Assembly: GCF_026210795.1 (NCBI RefSeq)
Contig: NC_089443.1
Span: forward strand, 4,154,001 to 4,218,000
Direction: 5' to 3'
Source of the DNA: Rhizophagus irregularis
Lineage: Eukaryota; Glomeromycota; Glomeromycetes; Glomerales; Glomeraceae
Length of the DNA: 64,000 bases
Positions 35,913 to 59,253 of this stretch are shown one piece after another. The notes beneath the pieces are model-generated. The model did not search any database. It was not told where the DNA came from and worked only from the letters and a program-made list of their open reading frames with translations. The position numbers and the translations under genes were made by a program. Each line of letters begins with the position of its first letter. The first letter of the stretch is position 1.

Positions 35913-35982
35913 ACAATTCTGAGCATGATCTGTTCAGGAAAATCTTTATTTTAACCTATAATTTCAGGATAGACAAATCCGC

Positions 35983-36465: not shown

Positions 36466-36494
36466 ATTAGATCCTGATTCGACAGAACGAAAAA

Positions 36495-38291: not shown

Positions 38292-38989
38292 ACGACTTGT
38301 TATCAGACTCGGATTCTACAACCGTGAACCCAACTTCTGAACAACAACCCGAGTCTCCCGCAGAATCTTCTGTATCTGTCACTAAGCCTGACCCAGAACC
38401 GGCTCCTGAAGAGCAATTTATCCCAGAACCCGACACAGAACCAGAAGTTGACCGGGATCCTGAACCAAAGGAAGGCACTCGAGCGCATTGGGCTTGGCAT
38501 GAAAGACACCGATGGGATCGCAAACCGTGGGTTAAAAATTCAAAGGACCAGGCCTTCGATGATCTCTACAATACAAGTAAGGAATTATGGGCCAAGTACC
38601 AAGACGCGTCAGATGACTATGACTGGGAAACACTCGCGTTTGAAATAGAGGAATGTCCCACAACGCGTATTGAGGACGAGTACCAGTATTACCTTAAGGA
38701 AGTAGTAGACCGCTTCAAGGACTGGATCGAATATAATGGATACTTACCTAAAACACCTAGCCGTAAAGAACTCGCAGATTTAATAAGAATATACAAGGAT
38801 AATCGTAATGCCAAGATTATTCCCACCCCCTCTGGGTATGAAACTATGAGGGCAGATAAGGGTAAAGCGCGAGAGATCTCCGAGGAACGTCCAAAAACTG
38901 ATATGGAACGTGAATGGGAAGCTGCCAATGGAATCATCGATGACTGGGACGAAGAGGATACTGAAGGCGCTATCAACGACATATTGTAA
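38246..38989 (+). CDS. acidic protein, possibly the frameshifted tail of the helicase
   Basis: About 230-245 aa with no good ATG start: the first in-frame start-like codon is TTG at 38297, and the frame overlaps the end of the helicase gene. The N-terminal half is Asp, Glu, Pro and Ser-rich like the end of the helicase. The C-terminal half is globular-looking (HWAWHERHRWDRKPWVKNSK, ELADLIRIYKDNRNA, a highly acidic end). No family recognised. The matching composition across the junction argues for one original protein split by an indel; a separate gene with a lost start is the alternative. Confidence 0.5.
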   Translation, partial: PRRTHPESDDDYDVLDDLLSDSDSTTVNPTSEQQPESPAESSVSVTKPDPEPAPEEQFIPEPDTEPEVDRDPEPKEGTRAHWAWHERHRWDRKPWVKNSKDQAFDDLYNTSKELWAKYQDASDDYDWETLAFEIEECPTTRIEDEYQYYLKEVVDRFKDWIEYNGYLPKTPSRKELADLIRIYKDNRNAKIIPTPSGYETMRADKGKAREISEERPKTDMEREWEAANGIIDDWDEEDTEGAINDIL

Positions 38990-40988: not shown

Positions 40989-41513
40989 ATGGGATATGTA
41001 ATCTTACGAGATACCCAAATGCAAAACACCGACGGATTAGGTAGACAAGACGACGAAAGTTTCCACGCGTGGGCTAAGCGCATTCAGAATGCTGTGCAAT
41101 ATTATGAGACTTGTAGTAGAATAGGTTTTCATAGGCGGCTACCTTATCCAAGGTCTCGTCAAGCTGTATATGCTTATATTGTGCACATTAGGAGAATAGT
41201 ATCACGACTACCAAATAGGTGGTACTGTACCTACTGTAAATCTTTTATTGATCGCGGATGGGGAGCCGATGCTTCCATGGATCAAGCGGTACGACTACAT
41301 TTATATAGTTGCCCAAAGCATTTTAATTTCGACTATTATACTCATCATGCTGAAATGATCCAGAAAGCCTTTAGGAGATATATAGAAAGAAGGAACAATA
41401 AAGCGGCTAGGATTATCCAGAAAGTCGCTATCCCCTGGTTATATAGACCAGGCTCTCCATTGATACAAAAGGCCGAGCGACACTTCTACTGCCTCGCAGT
41501 ATCCCAAGTGTAA
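40989..41513 (+). CDS. putative Zn-binding, IQ-motif-like protein
   Basis: 174 aa from ATG 40989; an earlier TTG at 40977 is less likely. A possible zinc site CTYCKSF (about 89-95) is followed by HLYSCPKH. The C-terminal third has two IQ-like helices, IQKAFRRYIERR and ARIIQKVAIPWLYRPGS, a pattern seen in proteins of large DNA viruses and repetitive genes of AM fungi. Role unknown. Preceded by a TTTATTTTTTA tract and a weak ATTGAATAA. Confidence 0.6.
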   Translation: MGYVILRDTQMQNTDGLGRQDDESFHAWAKRIQNAVQYYETCSRIGFHRRLPYPRSRQAVYAYIVHIRRIVSRLPNRWYCTYCKSFIDRGWGADASMDQAVRLHLYSCPKHFNFDYYTHHAEMIQKAFRRYIERRNNKAARIIQKVAIPWLYRPGSPLIQKAERHFYCLAVSQV

Positions 41514-41595: not shown

Positions 41596-42066
41596 ATGTC
41601 AACATATACCGAATTCACAAGCATTGTTAACAGCACTGACAGCACTAGTGAGGAGGTTATTTACGAGGCATCGCGCATTCAGCCTAGTGTTATCTCTGAC
41701 GAAACTGTCCCTAAGATTATCCGCGCATTAAAAGATACTATAGTAGTCGCATTAGTATCTGGGTTTAGCAAAACCAGTTACCTCGTCCAGGACCACGTGA
41801 AGTATATCAAGCGAATCCAGACGGCAAATTCTCCTGTATCATATGTAAAGTTCGTGGCCAGAAAACTCTTCCCAGATAATGCGGCATATACTGCTAAGAT
41901 AGCAAAAATCCGCGAATCATACAAGAATAAACAAGCTCTCCTAGATAAGCTTGAGGCCCTCTTCGAATTGTATTATAATGCGACTAAGGACTCATCAACT
42001 GGTCCCCCAAAGCGAGCTATTACTAAAAACGAGGCTGAGAAAACCTTAACAGAACTTCTTGCATAA
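41596..42066 (+). CDS. hypothetical 156-aa protein of the Polinton-like element
   Basis: Mostly helical, basic in the middle (YVKFVARKLFPD, AKIAKIRESYKNKQALLDKL). No motif recognised. ATG start supported by the upstream TGAAGAT motif and the gene spacing of the element. It could be a DNA-binding or structural protein, but nothing in the sequence decides this. Confidence 0.6.
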   Translation: MSTYTEFTSIVNSTDSTSEEVIYEASRIQPSVISDETVPKIIRALKDTIVVALVSGFSKTSYLVQDHVKYIKRIQTANSPVSYVKFVARKLFPDNAAYTAKIAKIRESYKNKQALLDKLEALFELYYNATKDSSTGPPKRAITKNEAEKTLTELLA

Positions 42067-43102: not shown

Positions 43103-45235
43103 ATGTCTAGAAACCTTGCTAGAAGAGGTGGCGGCAGTTATAATCCTAATAGTAATAAGGCTGCTCGTCAAGAAAAGAAAAATAATAAAAAACAACTCTC
43201 TGACAACTCTGGTTCTGATAGTGATAATAATTCCCAAAAACGTTCCCGTATACTTACAAAGGACTCCATGGATGAAGACTATGAAGATTTCGTTGCCGAC
43301 GCGCCGGCTGACGGTGGTTTAGTTGGTTCAACTTCGACCGCTATTCCTCAACAAAATAATTCCCGCAGTACTGCCCAAGAAAATACTCAAGCTTCTACCC
43401 CGAATAATTCTGCTGCGCCTACTGCGCCTGGCCAAGACGCGTCCTCTGGAGCTAACGCGTCTATTCATGCACCTCGAAACAAAGAAAATAACTCATCCCC
43501 TAACGCGTCCCCTAATATGGACGTGAATGATGGTACATCGCCCGATCAGGCTGTCGATCCCTCCCCTACCATTACCATTAATCGTCAAGATTTCCTGGCT
43601 GCGGCTGCGCCCAACTCCGCTCCCCAAACTCTAGAGAAACTTAAAACTAATAAGGCAATTATAGATGCCGTTAACAATTTATTTTTAGAAACGTATGAAT
43701 CGTATACCGGTCGGGCTCGTATGACTGGTTCAGGGGACGCTAAGCGTCTCATCATACATTTTCATACTGCGGAGGCTCGTGACTTGTGTGTTGAAAGCAC
43801 ACACTCCGATTTTCCGGACCTACAATTCCACCTGTACGATCCTAAACAGCTCCGGTCCGATGAAGACCTCCGTGCAATTCAAGTCACGGATATACTGTTC
43901 TTCATTACTAAACCGCAACTCCAATCCTACTTCAAGAAATTCGGCAATCTCCTTGCCCTCCATCTTTACTCAAGGAAAGGTGCTAAGATGCAACAAGCTC
44001 GCATTGTCTATGATCATGCTGATGCCATCTCCCGTTTCACAACTCAATGGGCCGTTTACTGCTTTTCCACCTGCTTACGTGTTACCCCTTGCCATTATTC
44101 TTTAGAACAAAAAGCTGCTCGTAGAGCGTTCGTGGCTGTTCTCTCTGGACTTCCTGCTAATACTAAAGATATCCATCTCGCTCCCTTGGTCAAAGAACAT
44201 GGAGCAAAAGCTATTAACATTCCCCTTTCCCTCAATTCTTACAAACCCAAACCTTGGGCTTATGTTACCTTCAACTCGCAAGAAACAATGGATGCCGCTA
44301 TGGAGCAAACTATTGGTTTCCAAGGTCGTACTCTTCGATGGGGTACATCCAACGATTCTAAAGCTCTTTGCCACCGATGTGGTAAACTCGGTTGTGCTCC
44401 TACCTCCTGTCTGCTTAACCAACGCCGTGGTCGTTCACGTACACGTGACCCTGTGGCTGCTCTTAAAGAACGTTTCAATATTGGCCAAAGGCCCGCCCAA
44501 CAAAGAACGCCGCGCAATAATTCTCGTTCTCGATCTCGGTCTAAATCTCGGGATCGTTCTGCTTCAGCTCAACGTTCTAATTCCAACTCCAATAGATCTA
44601 ATAATAATAATTCCAATATTAATGCTAAGCCCTCCTCCTCCTCTGGCTCAGCTAACTCCTCCTCAACTGCTCATGGACGTACACCTTCCAACAACCGTAA
44701 AGGCAAAGATAGATCTGTTTCTTTTTCGTCCAATGCTCGTGCTCCACTCCCGGATCCGAATTCTCCTAATGCTCTTGAGGCTGCCCTTAAGATTCTTAAT
44801 GTTTTAACGAATCTTCAACAAGATGTTGCTCGTGTGGAATCCCGCATTTCAAATCTTGAACTTAACAATCAACAGCTATCCGCTATTGAAGCCCACTTAG
44901 GCATCAATCCTCCCCCCGCTCCTGTTGTCAATTCCGAACCTGATTGGATGGAAGAAGACCCTCCTGAATCTACTGGTACCTTAATCCCACATCCTAATGC
45001 TCCCTTATCTTCTGGTGCAAAGAATTCCTCTTCCCCCAAATCTACACCCAATAATATTCCGCACTCAGCTCCTGCATCCGTCTCTAACCCTTCCCCACAA
45101 GACGAATTGAACTCGGTTATTCAAGATCAAAAAGCGATTAAAGATACTTTGCAATCGCTCACTGGTTCCATTCAAGGTTTTATCGCTTCTCTTGGTGGTT
45201 CTCCCTCCGATCGAGCTTCAGCTCCTTCGCAATAA
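43103..45235 (+). CDS. LINE ORF1 (Gag-like RNA-binding protein)
   Basis: 710 aa. N-terminal 150 residues are low complexity (Asn, Ser, Ala, Gln). A central nucleic-acid-binding part runs from about 225 to 425: VTDILFFITKPQLQSYFKKF, CHYSLEQKAARRAFVAV, and PWAYVTFNSQETMDAAM, two RRM-like units. A zinc knuckle CHRCGKLGCAPTSC at about 432-445 has the spacing C-x2-C-x4-C-x4-C, with Cys in place of the usual His. An Arg-Ser-rich region and a Pro-rich C-terminus with a short coiled coil follow. It packages the LINE RNA with ORF2. ATG 43103 lies 109 nt inside the 5' end. Confidence 0.85.
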   Translation: MSRNLARRGGGSYNPNSNKAARQEKKNNKKQLSDNSGSDSDNNSQKRSRILTKDSMDEDYEDFVADAPADGGLVGSTSTAIPQQNNSRSTAQENTQASTPNNSAAPTAPGQDASSGANASIHAPRNKENNSSPNASPNMDVNDGTSPDQAVDPSPTITINRQDFLAAAAPNSAPQTLEKLKTNKAIIDAVNNLFLETYESYTGRARMTGSGDAKRLIIHFHTAEARDLCVESTHSDFPDLQFHLYDPKQLRSDEDLRAIQVTDILFFITKPQLQSYFKKFGNLLALHLYSRKGAKMQQARIVYDHADAISRFTTQWAVYCFSTCLRVTPCHYSLEQKAARRAFVAVLSGLPANTKDIHLAPLVKEHGAKAINIPLSLNSYKPKPWAYVTFNSQETMDAAMEQTIGFQGRTLRWGTSNDSKALCHRCGKLGCAPTSCLLNQRRGRSRTRDPVAALKERFNIGQRPAQQRTPRNNSRSRSRSKSRDRSASAQRSNSNSNRSNNNNSNINAKPSSSSGSANSSSTAHGRTPSNNRKGKDRSVSFSSNARAPLPDPNSPNALEAALKILNVLTNLQQDVARVESRISNLELNNQQLSAIEAHLGINPPPAPVVNSEPDWMEEDPPESTGTLIPHPNAPLSSGAKNSSSPKSTPNNIPHSAPASVSNPSPQDELNSVIQDQKAIKDTLQSLTGSIQGFIASLGGSPSDRASAPSQ

Positions 45236-45282
45236 CTGATTTCTCAACTCTCCTCCTCGTTTATAATTATCATTGTGTTCTA

Positions 45283-48200
45283 ATGACTGACAATTTTGAT
45301 TATGATACATTTGTTCGAAACCCCCCCAACTCTGTAGATATTTATAATTTTTCAGCACATGAATCTTTATTTACTACCTTAAATGTTTTTCCTATCCCTA
45401 ATTCTTTTAATATTTCATCCTTTAATGTTAATGGTCTTCGCCATAATAGTCAAGTTAAAATTGAACAAATTTCAAACTTTTTCAACCTCAAGCATATTTC
45501 CTTTGGTGGTATCGTAGATACCCATCTATCCCCCAAACAAATTCATTTTTTATCTAAACGCCTTCCTAATTATACAGTCTTTTCCTCTGACTTAGATAAA
45601 ACTAAACAAGTCAAATCTACTGGTGGCGTCTCCCTTTTTATTGAAAAATCTCTTGCTTCTCATGTACAAGATTTTGTTTCGCATTCCTCACGTATTTTAT
45701 CTGTTGACCTTTATTTTAAAGGCAACATTAAATTGCGTATTTTTGTTATATATATCCCTCCTATTTCCGATTCTAAATTACGATCTGAAACTATTGATCT
45801 CCTTTTACAATTATTAGTGCAAACTAAACAACAAAATTTTTATCACGCCATTTGTGGCGATTTTAATATGCACTTAGATACTTATTACCCTATTTATTTT
45901 AACCGCCCTTCTGTTGCTTCTCAACGGTCTTATCGTTTGTTGCATCATCTTTTATCTCATGGTTATGAAGAAACCATTCCTGTTAATGCTTCTAATTCCC
46001 TAGGCACCTTCCACCGTGATGACCAGATTACTCGCATAGACTATGTTTGGTCCTGCCCGATGCTAAAAAGCTTTGCTCTCACTTCCTACATATTCGACGC
46101 CCATGATACCTGCTCTTCTGATCACAATCCTGTTATCACGTATTTTGATGATTCACTCTTAGTTGCGTCTATCAAGGTTGCTCGTGCTAAACAACTTCAA
46201 CGTCGAACTCGCCGCATTTTCAAATTTGATTCAGTTACTATTCAACAATGGGAATCCTTTTCCACTCACACTGACTCATTTTGCGACGTTCTTCCTTCTA
46301 CTTTTTCAACATGGCACATCAATCAACAATGTGAATACTTACATTCTCGTATCGTGAAAGCTGCTAATGCTTCTCTTCCATCTGTCACGGTCAGTAATCA
46401 ACACACATCTACGGTGCCTAAAGACTTGGAAGCTTTAACTCAACATTATCGTTTCCTCAGCCGTCTTTTGCATTCGATACGCTTATTGCGCAAATATCCT
46501 TCCACATATTTTAATAGATATGAACATGTTTGGTCCATTCATTTCATTCGACTTCAAAAAATTCTTCATCTTTATAAGAAGGTTATTCCTTCCCCCCCTA
46601 TTTTACCTACTTCTTTAACCACATGTAGGCAAGACGGTTTTAATTCTTTATTAGAATCTTTAAAGATTATTTCCAGTGCCCTTTATGGCCTCCTTCTTCT
46701 CAAAGAAAAAGATTTTCAAGATTCTTCTATTCGTGCCAAATTGGATGATAGGGACAACAATTTTGAATCTGATATTTTCTCATTCATTAATTCAGCTCTC
46801 TTAAGGACTCGTCGTCGTATCACATTGGATCGTGTCTTTATTGACCACCCTACACATCCTAAACTTTTAACGGACCTGCATGATATTGATGACGCTGTTA
46901 TCAACCACTTCCAGAATTCCGTACCTATTAAATCATCTCCTCCTGATAACATTTCAGCTCTTCCTGAAAAATGGTCTTCTGCTTATCGCCCTATGGATGA
47001 TGTGAATTCTTCTATTTATGATTCTTTGTTGGATCCTCCTACTCTTGAAGAATGGTTGTCTACGGTTTCTTCTATGCCTAACGACAAAGCTCCTGGTCCT
47101 TCTATGATTACTTATGAAATGCTTAAGCATCTGGGTTCAAATGCTTCTGCTCTGGTTTTAATCCTGGTCCAATCATGTTTCCATACTGCAGACATTCCTG
47201 ATTTATGGCGTCAAGCTATGGTTTTTCCTATCCCTAAACCTCACGAATGGAAATGTCAACTCAAGAATACAAGACCTATTACTTTACTCGAAGTTATTAG
47301 GAAATCTTTGGTCAAACTTTTTTATAATCGTCTCGCTTCCACTTTGGCTTCGAATGAAGTTCTCAAAGGAGGTAACTTCGCCGGTCTCCCTGGTGGTTCT
47401 TGTCGCGACCCTATTGTCGTCCTGGAATCTATTATCCATGATGCTCATGTCAACAAATCGCCGCTTTGGATCCTTTCACAAGATATATCGAAGGCTTTCG
47501 ACTCAGTTGATCTCAAGATGTTGCGTTTTGCTTTAGAACGCATTAAACTTCCTGCTTCTGCTACCAAGTTTATTTTATCCCTTTTTATGAAACGCTCTAA
47601 TCGCGTTTTTACTGCTCATGGAACTACACCTTCTTACCGTGTTCGTATTGGTATAGATCAAGGCGAAGTTATCTCTCCTTTACTCTGGGTTATATATATA
47701 GACCCTTTATTAACTGTTCTTAAGAATGAAATGATGGATCCTTATATACTTCATGCTCCTTCTTTATCTAATCCCTTGGCTGAGCCTAGTCCAGATGGAT
47801 TACGCATCAACAACTTGGTCTTTATGGATGATTCCACTTTAATCTCGTCATCTAAATCTGGAATGGAATCGATGCTTTCTATTACGGAAGAATTTTATCA
47901 GATCAATAATACTTCCGCTAATCACAACAAATATGTTTTAATTACTAATTCGTTGCCTCCCACTTCAGCTCCTTCGCCTTCTCCAGTCGTGTTTGACTTG
48001 CAATTATCTGGACTGAACAAAGTTCCTTCCATTTCTATTGTGCCTATTTCCATGAATAGTTCTTTCCGCTTCCTGGGCGTCTGGTTCAATGTCGCTGGAT
48101 CTCGCGATTTCGTCAGAAAGCAAGTTGCTCGAGAATGTAACTCTTTCGCTGCTACAGTTCGTCCTGCCAAATTATCTGCTAAACAAGTAGTTTATTTACA

Positions 48201-50904
48201 CAACACTGTCCTTATTCCGAAATTGGAATATCGCATGCAAGTCACACACCTCTCTGAATCTGAATGTGCTTTGACAACCAGCAGTATCCGTTCCTTGGTT
48301 AAACATAAGGCCAATTTTTCACGTGTACTCCCAGATTCTATTTTGTTTTTATCTCAAGGCTTGGGATTGATTAATTTATTTTTTCACCAATCACAAACAC
48401 ATTTAACTAATTTGTTTTTATTAGCTAATTCTTCTTCTCTTTTTATGAAAAATTTATTTTTATATAGATTACGTTTAATTCAATTTTCTTTTTTGATTCC
48501 CATTTCTCCATTGTTAGTTAAAGATTGGACTTTATGGTCTAAACTTTTCACCTTTAAACAGGATTATATCGCTTGCACTATTGCTCTCCTGACCACTACT
48601 CCTTTCAAGTTGTCACGTTCTCGATTTTCAACCTCGTCTGACCTCACCGTACCTGATGGTCACACGCCTTTATTTGAAGTGATGACTCCAACAATTTTTA
48701 TATCTTACTTCTGACGTCTAAGAAGTTTGCAACTCTATTACCTATCTCAATTCATCACGCCTCAAGGAACCCATATGATCACTTGGAATGTTTACTTATC
48801 CAATCTATCAAGTAGAAAAGGCCATCGAGTCCTCCCGCATAAATGGTTCAATGACATCCACCAATGCGTCACTGTTCCAAATTCCAATTCTCTGCTCTTG
48901 GATCAATTTTCTTCTGAAGCTATCCCTTCAAACATTGTTTTGGCTCCAGCCTTTGGTTCCTCTAGAAAATCCATGAAATGGATCGTGACTTTAGACGAAG
49001 ATGGCTCTCCTCTTTTTGGAAAACAACTTAGCAAACAACAATATTCCTGCAAGATTGTCCATTGGACCTCTGATTGTGTGATTCGACCTAATGATGTTAT
49101 CACGCTTACTCCTTGTCCTGGTTGTTCTAAACATGTACCGGTTACCCATACTAAAAGCAACCCAACAGATGTTACTCCTCTATGTATCATCCCAAAACTT
49201 TCTCCTCTTAGATCTTTACTTCTCCCAACAACGCAGGAGCGTATTAGACATGACACCACCACTATTACTTCTCCTTTTACTTGGGCGGACCTGGACGAGA
49301 TTGTAAGATCCTATTATGATCGTTTGGACATTCTGCCTAATTTTTCACAAGAAGATGTGGTTACTCTCCCTTCTCCTTCTCCTTCCCCCTCCTTGGGTTC
49401 GGCTGCCTCCTTTGCTTTTGCTGCCTCACCGTTAGCGACTCCTCCTGATAATCATTATTGTTTTTATACTGATGGTTCTTTAATTAACCTTGGCACTCCT
49501 GATGTTTCTATGGGTTGGTCTTGGGTCCAAGTCCTTGATGGCGCTGGTTTTTTCCAATCTATCGCTGCTCACGCTCATGGAATTTTTCACAATTGGCCTT
49601 CTTCTACAAGAGCTGAAATCGCCGCTATACATGCTGCTCTTACAGTCACTCCTCCGTCTTCAACGGTCACTATTCATACTGACTCTCAATCTGCCATAGA
49701 TGGTCTTCGTCTATGTGCTTCCTTTTCTTATTCCAATAGTAGGCTTTATTACAAGACCACCAATTTTGAACTCTGGGCTATTATTGAACGTCTCATTTCC
49801 TCCAAATCTTTATCTGTCACGGCTATTAAAGTGAAAGGTCACTCTGGTAATTTCTATAATGACTACGCGGACTCTCTGGCCAACTCTGCGCATACTTCTT
49901 CTTCAGCAATTCTTCTTTCTGATCTGGATCAAGTATCTCCTCACGATTTCTTATTAAAATATGATGATATTTTATGCGAATCCAACCCACGACGCCTATT
50001 TAAGCAATATTCGCAAATGCTGTGGATGCATAGATTAACGCGTTTATCGCGTTTTAACTTTACCATTGCTTTATCCTCTATCTCAGATTTCGTGATTGAT
50101 TGGGATCTTACCTGGTTCTCGCTAAATTCTGAACCTCAGCATGATGCTTCATTTACTCGTGCTCATGCTTCCTTCCATCGCACCTTCAAATTCAAACTCT
50201 TTTTGGAAGATTTGCCTACCTTGGAACATCTTAAAAGAATTCGCCCGGACTTGTATATTGACATCTTATTGTGTCGTTCGTGCCTCGACTCCAAGGAAGA
50301 TTTCATGCACTTGTTTATGTGCAAATGTAGACGAATCGCTATGGAACAAATTCTCCTCTCCTACCAACATCATTTTATCAACAAACTTCAAGAAGCTGGT
50401 GATCTCGTTAAGAAAGATCCCTCTTTAATTATTAACAAATTTAAATCTCTTCCTTGTTGGTCCTTTTCTTCTTCAAATTGGACTTCATATAGCCTTGTCC
50501 GTGGCTGCCTTCCGAAATCATTTGTCGAATTTTTGGAAGAACTTTCTATTCCACGTAACTCTGCGATGAAGGTTATCTCTGCTATCCACAATCACTTTAT
50601 CCAAAAGATTAGAAAACGAATTTGGCTACCGCGCTCCTATGATAAATCTAAATGGGAAGATGCGATGAATATTACTCATAAACTCAAACTTTCTCGGCCT
50701 TCAAATTTGCAAAAGTCTACGTACTTACCTTTCTCAACTTTACCTCCTCCGACCCTTTCCGACGCCGCACGTGACTCCGACGTTGATTATTTAAAGAACT
50801 CGATGAAATATGGTTTGCCTTGGTTTAATCACTATTCGGGTTTTATGGGTCGTCTAACGGTGCAACTTACTAACAGCTTTTGCAGGGTGGTGTGTCGATT
50901 TTAA
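45283..50904 (+). pseudogene. LINE ORF2: endonuclease-RT-RNase H with one in-frame TGA
   Basis: One frame of about 1,873 codons interrupted only by TGA at 48712-48714. APE-type endonuclease: SFNVNGLRHN, CGDFNMHLD, RIDYVW, SSDHNPV. RT: NDKAPGPSMI, SQDISKAFDSVD, GIDQGEVISPLLW, catalytic FMDDS. After the TGA the frame continues with RNase H: YTDGSLINL, STRAEIAAIHAAL, TDSQSAIDGL, KVKGHSG, DYADSLAN. A C-terminal Cys/His motif CRSCLDSKEDFMHLFMCKC ends the domain list. The order APE-RT-RNase H is that of the I/Tad1 group. The enzyme nicks target DNA and copies LINE RNA. The single nonsense codon probably kills RNase H in this copy. Confidence 0.88.
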
Positions 50905-51256: not shown

Positions 51257-51841
51257 ATGTCATACCCTTATATAACTAATCCTATAACCGGACGTCCAAT
51301 CCGTGTTGGTGGAGATACCTTTAATCGAATAGTTATGGAATCCCATGATTATATCGATGGAAGGCTTGTCCGTAGACAAACCGTACCGCCTCCACCCCAG
51401 GAACAACCTGTATATTTAAATACAGATACAGGACGCTATATTCAACACGGTACTAGAACGTATCATAGACTGGTTGAGAGTGACTACGAGGTAGTTGAGG
51501 ACTACTACCTTGTTCATTCTGAAGAGGAGGAGCTTATAGAGGAAATCATCAATGAAACACGCTATAATGAGGAAAATCTTGATGGCCAGCGGTTAACTTT
51601 CAATGATATACAACAAATCAGGGCCGCTATTCAGGCTGACCAAGATGAATATGATGATTTTATCTTACAGCAAGATACGACTAATGGGACACCTTCCTCT
51701 GGTCCTTCCGGTCGTCCACGAACTTTGGAGGACCATACCCTGAGACTTGCAGAGCTTAATATTGAGTTGTGTAGGGAATGTCTCATGCCTGTAAGCCCAA
51801 GTGACTTAACGGACAAGTTGTGCAAGAACTGCGCTTCCTAA
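51257..51841 (+). CDS. 2-cysteine-adaptor-like protein with C-terminal zinc ribbon
   Basis: 194 aa. Two tandem copies of an N-P/T-x-T-G-R-x-I-x-x-G-x-x-x-x-R-x-V pattern: YITNPITGRPIRVGGDTFNR (5-24) and VYLNTDTGRYIQHGTRTYHR (53-72). This recalls the viral 2-cysteine adaptor domain of large DNA viruses, though the flanking Cys pair is not visible. A Glu-rich middle follows. At the C-terminus CRECLMPV..LCKNC is a likely four-Cys zinc site. Probable adaptor in replication or virion assembly by analogy only. Preceded by an excellent AATTGAAGATA motif. Confidence 0.6.
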   Translation: MSYPYITNPITGRPIRVGGDTFNRIVMESHDYIDGRLVRRQTVPPPPQEQPVYLNTDTGRYIQHGTRTYHRLVESDYEVVEDYYLVHSEEEELIEEIINETRYNEENLDGQRLTFNDIQQIRAAIQADQDEYDDFILQQDTTNGTPSSGPSGRPRTLEDHTLRLAELNIELCRECLMPVSPSDLTDKLCKNCAS

Positions 51842-52001: not shown

Positions 52002-52553
52002 ATGTCAACATCAATCATAATAAACCAGTGTCAGAACTGTGGAGTATTCTCTGCAAAAGCGGCATATAGAGGATTATCCAGCGTGTTGTATAGACAGATT
52101 ATAAAGAAGATTGGTGACGAGAGTGAACCTTTACAAGCCTTGGGACTTGCCAGGGATAAGTTGGTCCAGATTATCCGTCGGGCAAGTAATGCGGATTTTA
52201 CGCAATTATTCACACAAAGACTAGATATGAAAATTATGGACGGAGATTCATACGAGGATACTAGGAAGTGGCTTCTTGAACAGCTTATAGCCATTGGATG
52301 TGACAGTGGGGAAATTGCCTTATATCAGTTCTTACGGAATACATACCCGGATGGTATTGACGAACCCTTTACTACATTCTATGAGAACTATGTAAATCAT
52401 GTAAGAAATCCGATGACTAAGAACTTTGCTTCTCGAGCCTTAGGAGCTATTGGATTAAAAGCTAGGATGCTACGGATTGACTTCGAAGGACGTAAAAAAA
52501 GTGCCATGATTCTTAGGGCTTCTGCGGAAGAACTTCGCGAGATGGGTTGCTAA
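52002..52553 (+). CDS. hypothetical 183-aa protein of the Polinton-like element
   Basis: Starts MSTSIIINQCQNCGVFSAKA with a CxxC pair near residue 10; the rest is helical, with no further Cys pair except a terminal MGC. No family recognised. It ends 14 nt before the convergent packaging ATPase gene. Position between the replication arm and the ATPase would fit a structural or DNA-binding role, but that is inference. Confidence 0.6.
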   Translation: MSTSIIINQCQNCGVFSAKAAYRGLSSVLYRQIIKKIGDESEPLQALGLARDKLVQIIRRASNADFTQLFTQRLDMKIMDGDSYEDTRKWLLEQLIAIGCDSGEIALYQFLRNTYPDGIDEPFTTFYENYVNHVRNPMTKNFASRALGAIGLKARMLRIDFEGRKKSAMILRASAEELREMGC

Positions 52554-52566
52554 AGCAGCCAGATTC

Positions 52567-53789
52567 TTACAAAATACTATTGATCCCTACTCGTAATGCT
52601 CGACGGTCCATATGACCCTTAGAAAAGATCTGTAAAAGGATCCCGATGCCTTCTATTAATTTTTTATTATCCAAAGGGTGACTAGACTTCAGGACTTCAT
52701 ATCGGGAGAATAACTCCTTTACGGTCTCAGGTTTTGGAATTTCAGTCTTCGTGGTCCTATCCCGTACTTTCGCTAAGAAGTTTTGGAAGTCTGATCCCAA
52801 GGTCTTACCAGATAGTCCGTAGGCTTCCTGAAAGACGTACTTAATCCAGGTATCTGCGTTCTTAGCTATAACACCAGATACGAGAAGGTGTTTTCTCTCT
52901 TTAGGCGATGGATATTCCCGAGCAAACTCGATTAGCTGGGAGGACTTTTTTGCTTCAGCTACGGCTTTCTGGCCATAGGAACTAAACTTTGATCGAACTG
53001 GGTTCAAACTTGGATTGAACTTTGATCGAACTGGGTTCAAACTCGGATCGAACGGGGATTGAACTGAGATCGAACTAGGATCGAACTGAGATTGATCGGT
53101 GATCGAACTGAGACTAATATCCCATCTAACCCGAATAGATAACGGATCGCTCTTGGATCTTCTAAGATCAAATACTATAAATTCGCGTTGTAGAGTAAGG
53201 TCATCGATTACTGGAGCTAGTGACTCCGATTCTTCTGTATACTGGCGGATGATCCTCTTAGTATCGGTCAAACTTCCGTGACCTCCATGTAGGGAAATAT
53301 AATTCACATTTTCACGAATAGCCTTGGGAATGGTAAAGAATCTTTGGGCCACATAGATACACGAGATATTTTTGTGACGCCCGTGTGTAAAAAATCCAGT
53401 GATGAGATCCTGGGTTTTTTTAGGCGCATCCATCAAATCCTCGAAGATTACCACAGTAGCCTGGGTGGAGTTGAAGTCCTTAACATTTGAATCTCACTAT
53501 GGGATACTGCGGTAAACGGAATTTCTTCTTCTTTGAAAAAATCACGTACGACTGCCCACTTCGGTTCATCGAGGTATCTGCCAACTAGAATTACCGCATC
53601 ACATAATATGTACCTTTCGCCATCCTCCTTTGCCTTCTTGTCTCCCATTAACAAATTAATAATCATAGTTGTCTTACCCGAGTCAGAACTTCCTGCTACG
53701 GCAAGACGGAAAGGCCATGATGGGGCAAACTCATTACCCTGTCTCGAGTCGGTTGTGTACTCGTCCAAATTGTATACATAAAGATCCAT
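52567..53789 (-). pseudogene. A32/FtsK-type genome packaging ATPase, frameshifted
   Basis: First frame from ATG 53789 (113 aa) has Walker A VAGSSDSGKTTMIINLL at about 31-47. Near 53485 a one-base loss shifts the frame, so the first frame ends at 53448. The second frame continues with Walker B TVVIFEDLMD, then FFTHGRHKNISCIYVAQR, a typical sensor region, and runs to 52567. Together about 400 codons. Such ATPases pump DNA into capsids in Polintons and large DNA viruses. An imperfect tandem repeat (about 52981-53110) inserts several DPSLNPVRSKF-like copies in the C-terminal third. Divergent from the Gag-like cassette, with 28 nt between the two start codons. Confidence 0.82.
52981..53110 (-). 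repeat. coding minisatellite in the ATPase gene
   Basis: Period about 33-36 bp, three to four diverging units based on GATCGAACTGGGTTCAAACT. It encodes repeats of F-N/D-P-S-L-N-P-V-R-S-K. Confidence 0.7.
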
Positions 53790-53817: not shown

Positions 53818-54525
53818 ATGATGTCGACACCAATTGCAATTTATACTCCTTCAGAGCCTACTGGACCGCCTCCTAGGGATTTGCGTGATATGAATAATAT
53901 ACCATTAGTTGCGGTAATTAAGGATCTAACAGATTTTTTAACTGTCAGTGATCGCATGGTTGTTAATCGAGATGTACAAAATGCAAACCATCGTCTTAAA
54001 CATGCTCTTAATTTATTAATTCATCGCTGTAGAGAAACATACGAAGAACGCGATATATTAAAAGCAGAACGTGATCGATCTCGAAAAGAACGTGATGAAT
54101 TACAAGATGAACTCGAGGTTCAAACGGGTTTGTTAGGTCTTACACAAGATGAGCTAAATAACGTACAAGATACTATTACTAGTTTAGAAGCTAATTTGGC
54201 TGAATTGGAACGTGAGTTTGGTGGTATGCGGACGACTAATCGTCGTCTTCAGCAGCAATATAATCTTATGAGAGGAGAACGTAATAGAACTATAGGTGAA
54301 CGTAATAGAGCTATAGGCGAGCGTGATGTGGCACGAAATCGGCTTGTATATGCCAATAATCGGGTTCTTTTTGGAATTCGGACATTGGGACGTCTTAGGA
54401 ATCGACTTTTCCAACAAATAGCCGCTCTGCGTATCCAAGTACAATGGTTGCAGATTAGACAATTGAACCTTCCTCCACCTCCTCTCAACCATCCACAAAA
54501 TACGATATGGCTGCTGTTGGTATAG
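53818..54525 (+). CDS. coiled-coil protein, likely N-terminal part of the Gag-like protein
   Basis: 235 aa from ATG 53818 (a second ATG follows at once). After a Pro-rich start there is a long heptad-rich coiled coil, about residues 75-215 (EERDILKAERDRSRKERDEL, TIGERNRAIGERDVARNRL), then a Pro-rich end (NLPPPPLNHP). Coiled coils in front of a capsid domain occur in other AM-fungal gag-like genes I recall. It overlaps the next frame by 19 nt. Either a separate protein or the N-terminus of Gag in another frame (indel or frameshifting). Confidence 0.6.
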   Translation: MMSTPIAIYTPSEPTGPPPRDLRDMNNIPLVAVIKDLTDFLTVSDRMVVNRDVQNANHRLKHALNLLIHRCRETYEERDILKAERDRSRKERDELQDELEVQTGLLGLTQDELNNVQDTITSLEANLAELEREFGGMRTTNRRLQQQYNLMRGERNRTIGERNRAIGERDVARNRLVYANNRVLFGIRTLGRLRNRLFQQIAALRIQVQWLQIRQLNLPPPPLNHPQNTIWLLLV

Positions 54526-56002
54526 CTGCCCCCATATTTCATGGTCGGGAAGATGAAGATCTTAATCTTTTTATTGATAACTTTTTAGGGTATATTAATA
54601 CCGTTGGTATTGATCCATTGGACGATGCCGGTGCGCCTCCTGGTCGGGTGCGAGCGATGGGGTTCTTCGTAGCTGTATGAGAGATGAAGCGGCGAGGTGG
54701 TTTGATGCAGAACTTACTGGAAAAAATTGGGAACTCTCGAATATTCGGTTAGTGGCTACTGCAAATGGTGGAGCCGGTGCTACTCGCCGAGCGTTCAGAG
54801 CTTTAGCTGTTCCTGAGGTTGCTAATGGATTACATGTTAGTACTTACTTACCCAGGTCTGATGCTGATGTATATTCAAGGGTTGCAGGTAATGCGGCGAG
54901 AACCGTTGGAGAGGCATTTTTCCCATCACGCGCTGATATCATTAGATCGAATTTTAAAGTTAAAGAGCAGTGGAGGCGTGCGGGCGGACGTCCTACTCAT
55001 CAACCCGTTAATGGGTTGGGAAATCATGGAGGTCCATTTAATGCTGCTGTCCAGAATCAACCAATAGTCTTACAGGGGATTCTCCTGGATCAAGCATTTA
55101 TGCATATGCGTACGAATTTTCCAACCGTCGTGGAAGAAAGACTTCAGATACGATTTAGTAATCTTTACCAGGAACAAGGTGAACCTGTTCGATCTTACTA
55201 TAAGCGAGTTGAGAGGGCTGGGGATATTGTAGGATATAATCGAATTATGGTTACTGACCAGTTCTATAGAGGACTTTTGCCGGAAAACGTTATTGAAGCT
55301 TCCAGAATCGGAGCGGCGCCTCTTAATATATTAATCGATAGATTGAGTGATCTTGAGCGACGAAAGGGTGAAATGTTCTATGGATTACAAAGGCGCCAGG
55401 GTATTGAAAAGGCTAAAAAAGAGGAATTGGCTGGCTATACTCATCCCGTGACTCCACACGAAGGTGCTGTAATACAAAGGTCGACAGACGTTATTACTCA
55501 AGAACGATTACATGAATTGCTCAAGGCACAAGCCGAGGAACTTACCAAGAATTTCCAGGCACAATTTAAACAATTACAAGCATCTAAGCCAGTTCGTAAA
55601 CCACCGGTCTATAGACAACAGATTAAACCTGTTCGGCCAAAGCCACGGCCACGTGTTGTTCAGAATCCTCAGGATCCTGATTGGGATGATGGTTATGTAG
55701 ATCATGATTTTGGTGATGACCCTGGTGACCCTGATGCTCCTGAGTGGACTAGTGAGGATGATCAACATGTTATTGATCTTATTATGGGATATGAGACGTC
55801 TAAAAGATTTCCAAAGAGACTTCAGAAGGCTAAAGATAGACGCGATAATCTGGAATTAGCCCGAGCAATGAGAAACCTCGATCTTAATGATGATGCTATG
55901 GATATTGATACTAATACCGCGAGTTTTGATGACTTGAAAATTGTTCCCGATGAGGAATGTGGTTTTCGGATTTGTGCGGTTCGAAGTACAAAAAAAAAGT
56001 AA
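54507..56002 (+). CDS. retroelement-type Gag capsid protein, one internal frameshift
   Basis: ATG 54507 opens MAAVGIAAPIFHGREDEDLN (F-x-G, D-L-N-x-F-I-D). At GGGG near 54660 one base seems missing, and the rest lies in the next frame (from ATG 54677: MRDEAARWFDAELTGKNWEL). The pattern F-x-G-x-x-E-D, then A-A-R-W-F, then FSNLYQEQGEPVRSYYKRVE, matches Ty3/gypsy Gag capsid domains. There is no CCHC knuckle; the C-terminal third is Pro/Arg-rich then acidic. It stops at TAA (56000-56002) just after nine A residues. No LTRs and no RT lie nearby, and spacing to the ATPase and integrase is tight, so it looks like a resident gene of the element. Confidence 0.72.
55990..55998 (+). promoter_or_regulatory. 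A9 slippery site, candidate -1 frameshift between Gag and protease
   Basis: In the Gag frame ACA AAA AAA AAG TAA; slipping back one base reads AAA AAA AAA GTA AAC and continues without stop into the protease. Such A-rich heptamers are classic -1 sites. The protease frame has a possible independent ATG at 55957. Confidence 0.55.
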
Positions 56003-56721
56003 ACTCGGATAAGGGTGTAAGTATCTCGAAACTTCTTAAATCTGTTCCAAAAAAATCAGTTAAAATGACTCCTATTAAGATTCCTGTGAAGGTTACTAGT
56101 AGTAAGCCCACACTTATAAAAGCCGTCACCAAAAATGATTCATTAAGTTTATTAAGGTCTGCAGATTTTAGGAAATTACTCCGCGAGATTCTTCGGGAAG
56201 AATTAAAGTCTGCTCGTAAAAGTACGGAGATTCCGGAAGACCTAGTTGAGGAAAAACAAGAAGAGGATATCAGGGAAGATGACCCGATGGATATTGACAT
56301 AGCTCGTTTAGAAAATACTAAAAATCTTTTAGCGCTGGATGGGAAGGTCAATGGGATAGCAATTCAGTGTTTAGCAGACACTTGTGCTAACGCGTCTTTT
56401 ATTCAGAGGAAAGCCACTGAAGAATTAGGGTTGGATATCGACAAGAGTATTACACATAACATATCCGGCGCTCCGGGTTCTGGTAGGACATTCGGCATGG
56501 TAAAAGGTGTGTCAATCAAACTAACCCCTGATTGTGTAATCACTGAGAATCTCGCGGTTTTAAGCGATTACAAGCATAGGGAGATTGGATTGAGCCGGAC
56601 GTGTCTGAAACGTTACAATTATGATGTCCATGAATCACGTGAACATATCGCCCTTACTTGTAATGAGAAGAATGTTTTTATCCCGATAGTTTCTGATGTG
56701 AATCGAGGAGACAAAAAATAG
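55990..56721 (+). CDS. retropepsin-like protease (Pro of Gag-Pro)
   Basis: About 240 codons after the slip; the -1 frame is open from 55957. Lys-rich and acidic linker, then a protease domain: CLADTCANASFIQRKATEEL carries the Asp-Thr motif, with Cys where Gly is usual, and the later HREIGLSRTCLKRYN matches the hydrophobic-I-G motif. A protease directly behind Gag in a -1 frame is the layout of retroelements. It would cut the Gag-like protein. The D-T-C in place of D-T/S-G may reduce or change activity. Ends 14 nt before the convergent integrase gene, behind a TTTATTTTTTATT tract. Confidence 0.65.
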   Translation, partial: KKKVNSDKGVSISKLLKSVPKKSVKMTPIKIPVKVTSSKPTLIKAVTKNDSLSLLRSADFRKLLREILREELKSARKSTEIPEDLVEEKQEEDIREDDPMDIDIARLENTKNLLALDGKVNGIAIQCLADTCANASFIQRKATEELGLDIDKSITHNISGAPGSGRTFGMVKGVSIKLTPDCVITENLAVLSDYKHREIGLSRTCLKRYNYDVHESREHIALTCNEKNVFIPIVSDVNRGDKK

Positions 56722-56735
56722 GGAATATTTATTTT

Positions 56736-57827
56736 TTATTCCCAAAACTTGCGGATTAAGGCAGGGACATCCTCCTCCAACCGGTCAGCGGGTTCCCAAG
56801 TGGCTTCGGTATCTGGGTATCGTTCCCACTTGACTAGATACTGGTCTTGACCCTTCCTGATGCGATGCCGGAGTATCCGCTCAGGTACAAATCTTTCGGG
56901 TTGCCCTCTTATCACGGAGTCAGGTGGGGGATGTTCATTTTCTGGAACAATCTGCAACTCTTTTCGGGTGTACGCACATCTGGATACACCTAGACGCCCG
57001 TGTGGTCCATCAAGAAGATACGTAGGAGGCTGTTCGGGTGAGAGGATCATTTTTTTGATGACACGGATATTGGGATTCCATCTTATGTCACCTGTACGAA
57101 ATTTTCCATGGAGTTTATTCCCGAGTACTGAAATAGGTTCGTCTAACTTGACTCGGACATGTGTTCCTTCAGAGAGAAGTTCTGTCTTTTTTGACACTTT
57201 GGGTGACCCTGTCGGAATGTCTGGGGGATTTCTCTGCCAGATTTCATCTATTTTATTAACTACATCACGGAAATCTTCTGACCATTCCACGGATGTCACC
57301 CCGGTCTTCAACTCCTGTGCCACCATTCGTTTTAGGAGAGGTTCCTGGATTGCTTGGATGGCTCGTTCAGCGTATGATTGCTGTTTGTGTCTTCCTGGTT
57401 CGCCGAACCTCATCATTACCCCTAGGCTGTTCAGGAAAAAATCACGTACCTGGTCGTTAGTGAATTCTGATCCGGAGTCTGTCTCCAGTCTGTGTGTTGG
57501 TGGCTTAATACGATTTCTTCTGTAGATTTTGACAAACCCGTTTAGAACCCTATTTGCAGTCTTATCCTTTAGGGGTTCTGCATCGACTTGTTTACCTGCG
57601 ACTTCCACCACTACGAGGAAATAGTGGAATCCTTTGGGGTCGACTCGCATCTCTGCAAGATCTGCCTGATGTGTTGCATTTGGTTTCCATACAACTACTC
57701 GTGGACGCTCTGATGACTTCTCCTTTAGGGGCTTTTTATATAGGTTGTAGTGCTCCTCACCTTTTAGAATTCGTGCCGGTACTCTGGAGAGATTGTAGTA
57801 TTTGTAGTAATTCTCTAAATGCGACAT
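56736..57827 (-). CDS. Polinton-type integrase with chromodomain
   Basis: 363 aa from ATG 57827; an upstream TTG at 57863 is less likely. Retroviral-type core: D56 (ATHQADLAEM), D117 (LETDSGSEF) and E154 (GRHKQQSYAERAIQ), D-36-E spacing. The GRHKQQS-AE motif is typical of Polinton and virophage integrases. No clear HHCC. The C-terminal 50 residues form a chromodomain (VPERILRHRIRKGQDQYLVK, WERYPDTEATWEP), which binds histone tails and would steer insertion. Minus strand and close to the right TIR, as in other Polintons. Intact frame, so this copy may still supply integrase. Confidence 0.88.
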   Translation of the reverse strand: MSHLENYYKYYNLSRVPARILKGEEHYNLYKKPLKEKSSERPRVVVWKPNATHQADLAEMRVDPKGFHYFLVVVEVAGKQVDAEPLKDKTANRVLNGFVKIYRRNRIKPPTHRLETDSGSEFTNDQVRDFFLNSLGVMMRFGEPGRHKQQSYAERAIQAIQEPLLKRMVAQELKTGVTSVEWSEDFRDVVNKIDEIWQRNPPDIPTGSPKVSKKTELLSEGTHVRVKLDEPISVLGNKLHGKFRTGDIRWNPNIRVIKKMILSPEQPPTYLLDGPHGRLGVSRCAYTRKELQIVPENEHPPPDSVIRGQPERFVPERILRHRIRKGQDQYLVKWERYPDTEATWEPADRLEEDVPALIRKFWE

Positions 57828-57871
57828 ATTACGACAAATTAAAGGAAAGATTTTGGACTTCAAATCTTAAG

Positions 57872-58192
57872 ATGACACGATTTTACTGCCTAAAGTGTAA
57901 GAAGGAAACCGAGACTGCTAGTGAAATACAAGATATGACCACAAATGGCCGCTATCGTTTACATGGTGACTGTGTAGTTTATGGGATGCATAAGAATACT
58001 TTTACTGGGATAGACTGGGTTATCAAAAAGAAAACCAAGGAGAAGAAAAAAGAAACTGCGGCTAAAAGACATCAGACGGCGTACAATCGGCAATGCAAAA
58101 AACTCGGGCAGAAAATCTTAGATTCTGATGACACGTGTAAGCAGTGTATTGATAAATGCCTTAAGGAGGCAAAAAAGAGGAAGACGGATTAG
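57872..58192 (+). CDS. DUF5679-like zinc-ribbon, basic protein
   Basis: 106 aa. MTRFYCLKCKKETETASEIQ followed by TTNGRYRLHGDC fits the start of the small viral DUF5679 zinc ribbon (F/Y-C-x-x-C-K ... N-G-R ... G-x-C). The fourth Cys is not at the usual place (DCVVYG). A Lys-rich stretch KKKTKEKKKETAAKR and a terminal CKQCIDKC follow. Probably a DNA-binding or virion protein. It starts 45 nt from the divergent integrase start. ATG 57872 chosen because the frame upstream of it lies inside the integrase gene on the other strand. Confidence 0.6.
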   Translation: MTRFYCLKCKKETETASEIQDMTTNGRYRLHGDCVVYGMHKNTFTGIDWVIKKKTKEKKKETAAKRHQTAYNRQCKKLGQKILDSDDTCKQCIDKCLKEAKKRKTD

Positions 58193-58201
58193 TACCGCCT
58201 T

Positions 58202-58717
58202 CTAAAAGTATTCCTCATCATCTGAGTCATCGAGAGATACCTCTCCATCATCTGATTCATCATCCGAGTCGTCAGGAGTGCGACCTTCCTTAAGCAATTG
58301 GATGTTGTACGTTATTTGAGTCCATTTCTCCCAGTCAGACTCTTGCGTTATAAAGCCGCATCTGAGGAGTGCTCTTTCTATTACTACCATCCCTGCAAAC
58401 CTGGTGTATTTTTTCTGATCGGCTTCATTGAAATTGTCAATGGCTTCTTTGTAGTAGTCTACTGCCTGTTTGTATACCTCTTCAGCTTCTTTATGCCGCT
58501 TCCACAACTCGGCTTTACAACAGTTATACCAGAGTCTGTTAATCTTGAGATGTTTTCTGAATTCTTTAACCGGAAGGTTTCTGACCATCTCTGCTACTAT
58601 GTCCGGGTCATTGAGGGGTGATGCCTGAATTTGGATCCATTTACGGATTCCATAGATGTCTACAAGATCAAGCCCGAGGTCTTCGGCAAGAGAAGTGGCG
58701 GCGTGTAAGTTTATCAT
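58202..58717 (-). CDS. hypothetical 171-aa acidic-tailed protein
   Basis: Helical body (DLVDIYGIRKWIQ, VYKQAVDYYKEAIDNFNEAD) and a C-terminus of Asp and Ser repeats. No family recognised. Its ATG at 58717 lies just inside the right TIR, so it is driven by the same TIR sequence as the helicase at the other end. Convergent with the zinc-ribbon gene, 9 nt between stop codons. Confidence 0.65.
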   Translation of the reverse strand: MINLHAATSLAEDLGLDLVDIYGIRKWIQIQASPLNDPDIVAEMVRNLPVKEFRKHLKINRLWYNCCKAELWKRHKEAEEVYKQAVDYYKEAIDNFNEADQKKYTRFAGMVVIERALLRCGFITQESDWEKWTQITYNIQLLKEGRTPDDSDDESDDGEVSLDDSDDEEYF

Positions 58718-58727
58718 TGTATGTTAC

Positions 58728-59209
58728 TTATAGTTACCTAATCTTCAATTGCCGAATATGTTTTTCCAAAGATCCGCGCTCCTACCCGGTTATCCTCCTA
58801 CAGATCTACAGGCCTTCTAGGGGTTATTAACCTACCTGTTCACTCGGTTTGTTATCTCACTGCCTCCAATAAGATAACGAACGGAATCCTGAAAGAATAA
58901 CGGATCGTAACGAATGTAACAGATCTGGGGGGGTAAAATCAAAACTTTTTTCTGAGGGGGTGTCCTCTCCTATTATTCTGAAATATCTGTTACATCTGTT
59001 ACATCTGTTACTCCCTTCTGATTCTATCGTATTTTCCTCTCTTTTTCCTTATTTTATCTGTTTTTTAGTATATTTTTAGTAACAGATGTAGTAACGGATA
59101 GTAACGGATCTTGGGTAAGCCTGCCCCACGGAGGGGAGATGTAGGTACTGCGAAGCCACGAGGCCGAGGTGGGGTGAGCGCTAGCGAGACACACTACCAG
59201 CCCGACGAC
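58728..59209 (-). repeat. right terminal inverted repeat
   Basis: Inverted copy of 35983-36465, about 99 percent identical by eye. Followed by the TCCGC target duplication at 59210-59214. Confidence 0.92.
58741..58749 (-). promoter_or_regulatory. ATTGAAGAT motif in the right TIR
   Basis: Mirror of the left copy, 24 nt upstream of ATG 58717 on the minus strand. Confidence 0.45.
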
Positions 59210-59253
59210 TCCGCCGATATGTGGGTATTGATTTGCTAGCATTAAGGGGGAAT

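What the first reader, a model, noticed from the sequence alone, without database searches (positions are those of the whole stretch)
53818..56721. Polinton-like element with a retroelement Gag plus retropepsin where capsid and protease genes are expected
Seen: between the packaging ATPase and the integrase sits a coiled-coil / Gag capsid / aspartic protease cassette, with 28 nt to the ATPase start and 14 nt to the integrase end, and no LTR, PBS or RT. Known: Polintons and their viral relatives use double-jelly-roll capsids and an adenovirus-type cysteine protease; I recognise neither here. Inference: this lineage may have replaced its capsid module by a retroelement Gag-Pro, giving a DNA element that could package DNA in a Gag shell. 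Alternative: a decayed gypsy fragment inserted by chance, or an unrecognised capsid elsewhere, for example among the 156-, 171- and 183-aa unknowns.
Basis: partly seen in the sequence, partly recalled or inferred. Interest (0 to 1): 0.9.

Follow-up and report, generated by a model that had tools for sequence, protein, structure and literature searches.

The report
DNA transposon with retrovirus-type capsid genes
A virus-like DNA transposon in a mycorrhizal fungus, in which no usual virus shell gene has been found, carries a retrovirus-type shell (Gag) and protease cassette that recurs in about a hundred copies, which suggests its DNA may travel in a borrowed retroviral shell.

Summary
The window holds a Polinton/Maverick-type element (35983-59209: TIRs, 5-bp TSD, PolB, D5-like helicase, A32 ATPase, rve integrase), split by a LINE. 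Between ATPase and integrase sit coiled-coil, Gag and retropepsin-like Pro ORFs. It is not a stray gypsy fragment: of 107 Gag loci found genome-wide, 105 have the element's integrase or ATPase within 12 kb, at least 27 are full-length and open, and the cassette has no LTR or RT. Gag and Pro are under purifying selection. Profile and fold comparisons put the Gag C-terminal domain with PEG10/retroviral CA. Pro overlaps Gag in the -1 frame at an A9G run before the Gag stop. The same run and order occur in a second, deeply diverged Polinton-like family with another PolB, seen in two copies. No separate ORF of jelly-roll MCP size was recognised in an intact 14.3-kb copy. PMC7805220 states that no MCP was yet found for this fungus's Polinton. 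Gag-Pro is the best candidate for the missing structural module. Particle formation and DNA packaging remain inferred.

The parts
35978..35982 (.). 5-bp target-site duplication TCCGC, left
   Evidence: flanks printed; matches 59210-59214
35983..36472 (.). left terminal inverted repeat
   Evidence: 449 nt 100% plus 50 nt 90%
36495..38989 (+). superfamily-3 / D5-like primase-helicase, frame broken here (606 + 247 aa stop-to-stop ORFs; 850 aa open in L032); roughly the last 400 aa unassigned
   Evidence: DUF5906 1.4e-17; DNA primase PHROG 2.9e-16
39072..40925 (+). family B DNA polymerase, 617 aa; first 333 aa match nothing in Pfam
   Evidence: DNA_pol_B_2 3.6e-6; PHROG DNA polymerase 5.4e-5
40989..41513 (+). 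174-aa unknown ORF, no counterpart in the L031 copy
41596..42066 (+). 156-aa unknown ORF, conserved in L031 (91%, dN/dS 0.16)
43103..50904 (+). non-LTR retrotransposon ORFs, recognised by eye (inserted later, not part of the element)
   Evidence: absent from the 14.3-kb copy
51257..51841 (+). 194-aa protein, weak 2C_adapt match below cut-off
52002..52553 (+). 183-aa protein, CxxC N-terminus, helical with winged-helix-like C-terminus in the model
52567..53789 (-). A32/FtsK-type packaging ATPase, frame broken here (407 aa open in L031)
   Evidence: Pox_A32 3.1e-9; terminase large subunit PHROG 2.2e-8
53818..54525 (+). coiled-coil protein, overlaps the Gag start by 19 nt
   Evidence: many coiled-coil families; Mis12 just over its cut-off; fused to Gag in family 2
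54507..56002 (+). Gag (CA-NTD, about 100-aa insertion, CA-CTD, charged tail without CCHC); frame break near 54650-54680 in this copy
55990..55998 (+). A9 run before G and the Gag stop: putative recoding site
55954..56721 (+). retropepsin-like Pro in the -1 frame of Gag, active-site motif D-T-C
   Evidence: (Asp_protease_2 3.7e-7)
56736..57827 (-). rve integrase with chromodomain
   Evidence: Chromo 6.7e-18, rve 1.1e-8
57713..58192 (+). 159-aa protein with DUF5679
58202..58717 (-). 171-aa unknown ORF
58721..59209 (.). right terminal inverted repeat
59210..59214 (.). 5-bp target-site duplication TCCGC, right

Best explanation
This is a Polinton/Maverick-type self-synthesizing DNA element whose structural module is a retroelement-type CC-Gag-Pro cassette instead of a double-jelly-roll capsid and an adenovirus-type protease. 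Shown: the cassette is a fixed, selected part of about 100 copies and recurs in a second diverged element family, again with an A32-type ATPase and an rve integrase. Inferred: PolB copies the linear DNA from its inverted repeats; Gag, with its coiled coil, assembles a retroviral-like shell; slippage at the A9G run makes a minority Gag-Pro that delivers the protease into the particle; the ATPase helps load DNA; the integrase inserts it with a 5-bp duplication. The capsid-domain part of the cassette appears to have been exchanged between lineages.
For: 107 Gag loci, 105 with integrase or ATPase within 12 kb; in the first 91, spacing and orientation near-fixed. Of the 2 others, one lies about 13 kb downstream of a PolB match (by eye). 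At least 27 full-length open Gags (16 B; 11 A, counted by eye). Selection: within-A dN/dS Gag 0.31, Pro 0.15, CC 0.43 (8 loci chosen because open); A vs B Pro core 0.10-0.12, Pro N-extension read in the -1 frame 0.17-0.19, Gag about 0.40, ATPase first 110 codons 0.09. CA-CTD: PEG10 E 8.7e-5 by profile, the 50 Foldseek rows shown are PEG10/MOAP1/HIV/SIV CA, VIA-align rmsd 1.4-1.6 A over 65-69 residues to HIV CA-CTD. A9G at the Gag stop in 1A, 1B and family 2. Family 2 Gag homologous over 262 columns (E 4.9e-28) beside another A32 ATPase (37% identical) and a different PolB with exonuclease. No separate unassigned ORF above about 195 aa in an intact copy. No MCP known for this fungus's Polinton (PMC7805220).
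Against: No expression, particle or packaging data. The Pro active site reads D-T-C in family 1, so its activity is uncertain; the family-2 Pro has no Pfam match and reads D-P-G or D-S-G. Family-2 Gag has no Pfam or PDB sequence match of its own; its assignment rests on the profile comparison. Only the CA-CTD fold is secure (model mean pLDDT 69, pTM 0.46; best Foldseek E 7.9e-3); whole-CA alignments are poor. Family 1 Gag has no CCHC knuckle. The N-terminal third of the coiled coil shows dN/dS near 1 between A and B. The A run is A8 in 8 and A11 in 1 of 26 type-A loci where it was matched; in such copies Pro stands in the +1 frame where both ORFs were read to the junction. No strong downstream structure was seen. 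Jelly-roll absence rests on ORF accounting and one fold model; about 330 aa of PolB and 400 aa of the helicase are unassigned and unmodelled. The genome-wide MCP and adenain Pfam searches had no positive control.
Confidence: 0.72

Rival explanations
1. The Gag-Pro cassette is a selected accessory, not the element's shell: it makes particles that interfere with rival elements, protect RNA or protein, or help nuclear import, while the DNA moves as a naked intermediate.
For: Element-borne Gag under selection fits any useful function; the CA domains of A and B differ far more than the backbone, as an arms race could give. The Pro motif D-T-C is atypical. Capsid loss with a plasmid-like life is known in this virus phylum (PMC11071308, passages).
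Against: The conserved A32 ATPase, a packaging-type enzyme, is kept with Gag in both families. Pro is kept with the overlap at the A run.
Confidence: 0.2
2. The element uses a jelly-roll capsid supplied in trans by another virus or element, or an unrecognised capsid gene of its own.
For: Virophage-like strategies exist (recalled). The 156-, 171-, 174- and 194-aa proteins, the PolB N-terminus and the helicase C-terminus were not modelled.
Against: No separate unassigned ORF above about 195 aa in the intact copy. By eye, the family-2 ORF lists show no MCP either. No Capsid_NCLDV match in the genome, though that search has no positive control.
Confidence: 0.07
3. A decayed gypsy/LTR fragment landed by chance between ATPase and integrase.
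For: The Gag resembles PEG10, a Ty3/gypsy-type Gag (type recalled), and Retrotrans_gag matches are abundant in this genome.
Against: 107 loci, 105 with an element gene nearby, open frames and purifying selection, no LTRs and no RT, same cassette in a second family.
Confidence: 0.01

Closest known systems
Polinton/Maverick self-synthesizing transposons (polintoviruses)
   Same: TIRs, family B polymerase, rve integrase, A32/FtsK packaging ATPase, about 14-kb DNA element
   Different: no double-jelly-roll MCP and no adenain-type protease recognised; CC-Gag-Pro present instead; 5-bp target duplication (the canonical 6 bp is recalled); family 1 PolB is short, with a separate D5-like helicase
Ty3/gypsy retrotransposons and retroviruses (Gag-Pro; PEG10, MOAP1 relatives)
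   Same: CA-CTD fold and sequence, Gag then Pro in the -1 frame with an A-run, chromodomain integrase nearby
   Different: no RT or LTR in the cassette; no CCHC in family 1; about 100-aa insertion between the CA domains; carried by a PolB element; D-T-C protease motif
Bidnaviridae (polinton-derived PolB with an unrelated capsid)
   Same: replacement of the jelly-roll MCP by an unrelated capsid protein (PMC11071308, passages)
   Different: their donor capsid is parvovirus-like (recalled), not Gag; no Gag protease
Caulimoviruses and foamy viruses
   Same: DNA-containing particles with Gag-type capsids; the foamy virus Gag has an N-terminal coiled coil (all recalled)
   Different: their DNA is made by reverse transcription; no packaging ATPase (recalled)

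Membership tests
Polinton/Maverick (transposon definition) | rve-type integrase | tested here: met
   rve 1.1e-8, chromo 6.7e-18
Polinton/Maverick (transposon definition) | protein-primed family B polymerase | tested here: inconclusive
   DNA_pol_B_2 3.6e-6; no exonuclease or terminal-protein domain recognised. Family 2 has PolB with exonuclease
Polinton/Maverick (transposon definition) | long terminal inverted repeats and target-site duplication | tested here: met
   the duplication is 5 bp in the window copy and in the nested copy at C24
Polintovirus (virus definition) | A32/FtsK packaging ATPase | tested here: met
Polintovirus (virus definition) | a recognisable separate gene of double-jelly-roll MCP size | tested here: not met
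   no separate unassigned ORF above about 195 aa in the 14,322-bp copy; the 183-aa protein is not a jelly roll. A jelly roll hidden in the unassigned parts of PolB or helicase was not modelled
Polintovirus (virus definition) | adenovirus-type cysteine protease | tested here: inconclusive
   no Pfam match among the element's scanned proteins; the genome search gave none but no control rang
Gag / retroviral-type CA superfamily | CA C-terminal domain | tested here: met
Gag / retroviral-type CA superfamily | CA N-terminal domain | tested here: inconclusive
   helical in the model; whole-CA alignments are poor, rmsd 10 A or more
LTR retrotransposon / retrovirus | LTRs and reverse transcriptase | tested here: not met
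   cassette and flanks of the window copy and L031; RT judged by the [YF]xDD motif only
Retropepsin | D-T/S-G active-site motif | tested here: not met
   D-T-C in family 1; D-P-G and D-S-G in the two family-2 copies; the family-1 domain itself matches Asp_protease_2

The most novel reading that the evidence does not exclude
A previously unrecognised kind of DNA virus-like element: a PolB-replicated, TIR-bounded DNA genome loaded by an A32-type motor into a retroviral-type Gag shell matured by a frameshift-delivered protease, with interchangeable capsid domains, present in at least two Polinton-like lineages of an arbuscular mycorrhizal fungus.
Probability: 0.5. Interest if true: 0.96.

Novelty: new variant of a known kind. 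Interest (0 to 1): 0.88.

Why it matters
Polintons are regarded as central to the evolution of eukaryotic DNA viruses (PMC11071308, passages), and the Polinton of this fungus was a named exception without a capsid gene (PMC7805220, passages). A fixed Gag-Pro module there would mean that retroviral and jelly-roll capsids are interchangeable on a DNA element, and that an A32-type motor may work with a Gag shell. It gives concrete, testable proteins and a recoding site.

Tried and rejected
Chance gypsy insertion: rejected. 'Integrase copies without Gag' as counter-examples: 19 of 113 had none within 6 kb at first. Five fetched all held a broken B Gag; the second Gag search and a 12-kb limit reduced them to 6, and 2 of those 6, fetched, also held Gag. 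The other 4 were not inspected.

PolB copies: 59 of 71 scored matches (of 259 candidates) have a same-strand Gag within 30 kb. By eye against, 6 of the other 12 also have one. The remaining 6 have no Gag or integrase within the limits and no ATPase within 29 kb; they were not inspected, so truncation, insertion or true absence is open.

Weak Gag_p24_C matches of the 183-aa protein (8 of 17 members, best 7.4e-4): its model has a winged-helix-like end and no confident PDB match, so I do not call it a second Gag. Relatives in IMG/VR: none confirmed for Gag, ATPase, PolB or the 183-aa protein; ATPase in phage records: none. Rfam match around the Gag-Pro junction: none; strong RNA structure after A9G: not seen. 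TIRs of the family-2 copy at C8: none in the fetched stretch. MCP and adenain Pfam searches of the genome: nothing, but no control rang. PDB sequence matches for PolB and family-2 Gag: none; for the ATPase only one chance-level hit.
Full report
What is there. The window lies in a 146.7-Mb, 32-contig genome; the named close relatives of its Gag are mostly Rhizophagus irregularis proteins, one from R. diaphanus. At 35983-59209 is an element with about 490-nt terminal inverted repeats flanked by a perfect 5-bp duplication TCCGC. Inside are a D5-like helicase, a family B polymerase, small unknown proteins, an A32-type ATPase, the cassette, and a chromodomain integrase. A non-LTR retrotransposon (43103-50904, recognised by eye) has inserted into it. 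This copy is damaged: the helicase, ATPase and Gag frames are broken. A relative (L031/L032) is 14,322 bp, open in all of these genes, with the same order of shared genes; it lacks the 174-aa ORF. A nested copy at C24:2523456-2537776 has a 5-bp duplication TCGCC, and the undisturbed site is seen in three other copies.

Is the cassette part of the element? Genome-wide search with the window Gag gave 98 matches (95 of 254 candidates scored), which merge to 91 loci in two types: A (52 loci, 73% identity or more to the window) and B (39, 52-57%). 86 of 91 have the integrase downstream in opposite orientation within 4 kb, most at spacings near 740 (A) or 807-838 bp (B); 77 of 91 have the ATPase upstream in opposite orientation. 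A search with a B Gag (89 of 334 candidates scored) raised this to 107 loci (52 A, 55 B). 105 of 107 have integrase or ATPase within 12 kb, and 107 of 113 integrase matches have Gag within 12 kb. Of the 6 without, the 2 fetched do hold Gag. Of 71 scored PolB matches, 59 have a same-strand Gag within 30 kb; by eye against later calls, 6 more do. These counts are lower bounds, because only the best candidates are scored. In the same genome, 150 Retrotrans_gag matches were scored (of 306 candidates), about two thirds in open frames of 900 aa or more (by eye); by eye none coincides with a cassette Gag. In the cassette no [YF]xDD-type RT was recognised, and no same-strand repeat above 15 nt flanks it.

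Expression logic. Gag and Pro overlap with Pro in the -1 frame, at an A9G run directly before the Gag stop. The run was matched in 26 of 30 type-A loci (A9 in 17, A8 in 8, A11 in 1), in 7 of 7 B loci that cover it (A9), and in both family-2 copies (A9). Where the run is A8 and both ORFs were read to the junction, Pro stands in the +1 frame instead. Between the Gag stop and the first Met in the Pro frame of type B lie about 92 codons conserved with A in the Pro frame (dN/dS 0.17-0.19), with no Met in between. This points to recoding (ribosomal -1 shift or transcriptional slippage). A public gene model skips the overlap (P0001), which implies a drawn intron, so splicing is not excluded. The coiled-coil ORF overlaps the Gag start by 19 nt in both A and B and is fused to Gag in family 2.

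Selection and module exchange. Within A, dN/dS is 0.31 for Gag, 0.15 for Pro and 0.43 for the coiled coil (28 pairs of 8 loci picked from 30 because Gag is open). Between A and B the integrase (93% identical, dS 0.49), PolB (dS 0.75), Pro core (dS 0.37-0.44), Gag tail (dS 0.33-0.36) and the 193-aa protein (dS 0.19) are much closer than the CA domains (36-50% identical, dS 1.1-2.4, near saturation). The first 110 codons of the ATPase are also diverged at synonymous sites (dS 1.18), and the N-terminal third of the coiled coil shows dN/dS near 1 with dS about 0.4. The CA part was most likely exchanged by recombination; a metagenome Gag (P0063) with a third CA type and a B-like tail fits this.

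A second family. Two A32 matches far from the cassette were followed up, and both proved to belong to another Polinton-like family. At C8 (L045, L042) there is a 945-aa PolB with exonuclease (PF00136 1.5e-42, PF03104 1.1e-16), a coiled-coil-Gag fusion of 825 aa, Pro, an rve integrase and an A32 ATPase; a broken copy at C12 has the same genes. Its Gag has no Pfam or PDB sequence match of its own but aligns with the family 1 Gag profile over 262 columns including the insertion (probability 99.8%, E 4.9e-28, 32% identity). Its Pro has no Pfam match and is assigned by position and alignment (25-26% identical). Its ATPase is 37% and its integrase 26% identical to family 1. So CC-Gag-Pro plus ATPase is shared across two different replication modules. 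Its copy number is unknown: the genome search did not complete (7 busy replies). 48 of the 136 A32 matches lay away from the family 1 matches known; several of those later proved to be family 1, and others may be family 2.

Mechanism. The best reading is capsid replacement: a DNA element that uses Gag as shell protein, Pro as maturation protease and the retained ATPase as packaging motor. The first part (fixed, selected Gag-Pro, with no MCP or adenain recognised) is shown; shell formation and DNA packaging are inferred. Against it: no particle data, an atypical D-T-C protease motif in family 1 (D-P-G and D-S-G in family 2), and jelly-roll absence argued from ORF accounting plus one model, with about 330 aa of PolB and 400 aa of the helicase unassigned.

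Literature. PMC7805220 (Microbiome 2021, passages) says that Polintons of Glomus intraradices (R. irregularis) had no detectable MCP and that one was still not found. PMC4028283 (Biol Direct 2014, passages) reads a concerted loss of capsid genes in some MCP-less elements. PMC11071308 (passages) notes capsid replacement in bidnavirids. PMC8647823 and PMC11075540 (passages) mention Mavericks in R. irregularis; the former calls them recently expanded, with numerous weakly methylated copies. PMC4409740 (one passage) names R. irregularis only in a legend, and PMC3671162 held none of my terms. No paper describing a Gag or retropepsin in a Polinton stood out in the listings of my ten searches; that library holds open-licence PMC papers only.

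Verdict.

Noticed in passing
L042-L045 (G000 C8:1662000-1677000 and C12:3673500-3687500): A second, deeply diverged Polinton-like family with PolB plus exonuclease, coiled-coil-Gag fusion, Pro, rve integrase, a 222-aa protein that looks endonuclease-like by eye (no Pfam match) and an A32 ATPase; the C12 copy has a zinc-knuckle-like CTKCGRFGQHF in its Gag tail.
   Followed up: partly
window 56377-56385 (Pro active site): Active-site motif is D-T-C rather than D-T/S-G in every family 1 Pro that my pattern matched (up to 36 loci and 97 proteins).
   Followed up: partly
window 54050-55500 versus L031: Gag CA domains of types A and B are far more diverged, also at synonymous sites, than most flanking genes: probable capsid-module exchange.
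   Followed up: partly
window 52002-52553: 183-aa protein with weak Gag_p24_C profile matches but a winged-helix-like model.
   Followed up: partly
window 53818-54525: The coiled-coil protein scores just over the Pfam cut-off for Mis12 (27.1 against 25.7 bits), probably coiled-coil bias; the B counterpart does not.
   Followed up: no
window 51257-51841: 194-aa protein with a weak 2-cysteine adaptor (2C_adapt) match.
   Followed up: no
window 39072-40070: PolB N-terminus has a GGCNGELNDCLYECL stretch that resembles, from memory, an OTU-type active site; Pfam finds nothing.
   Followed up: partly
window 43103-50904: Non-LTR retrotransposon by eye (ORF1, endonuclease-RT, RNase H-like ORFs) inserted in the element, with a 48-nt tandem repeat just upstream (42895-42994).
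   Followed up: no
window 12879-13187 (-): Ordinary LTR-type Retrotrans_gag match in a 1133-aa open frame.
   Followed up: no
window 59254-59418: 63-nt inverted repeat (84%) just outside the right TIR.
   Followed up: no
window 6000-28000: Strong GC and AT skew, negative at about 6-20 kb and positive at about 22-28 kb, unexplained.
   Followed up: no
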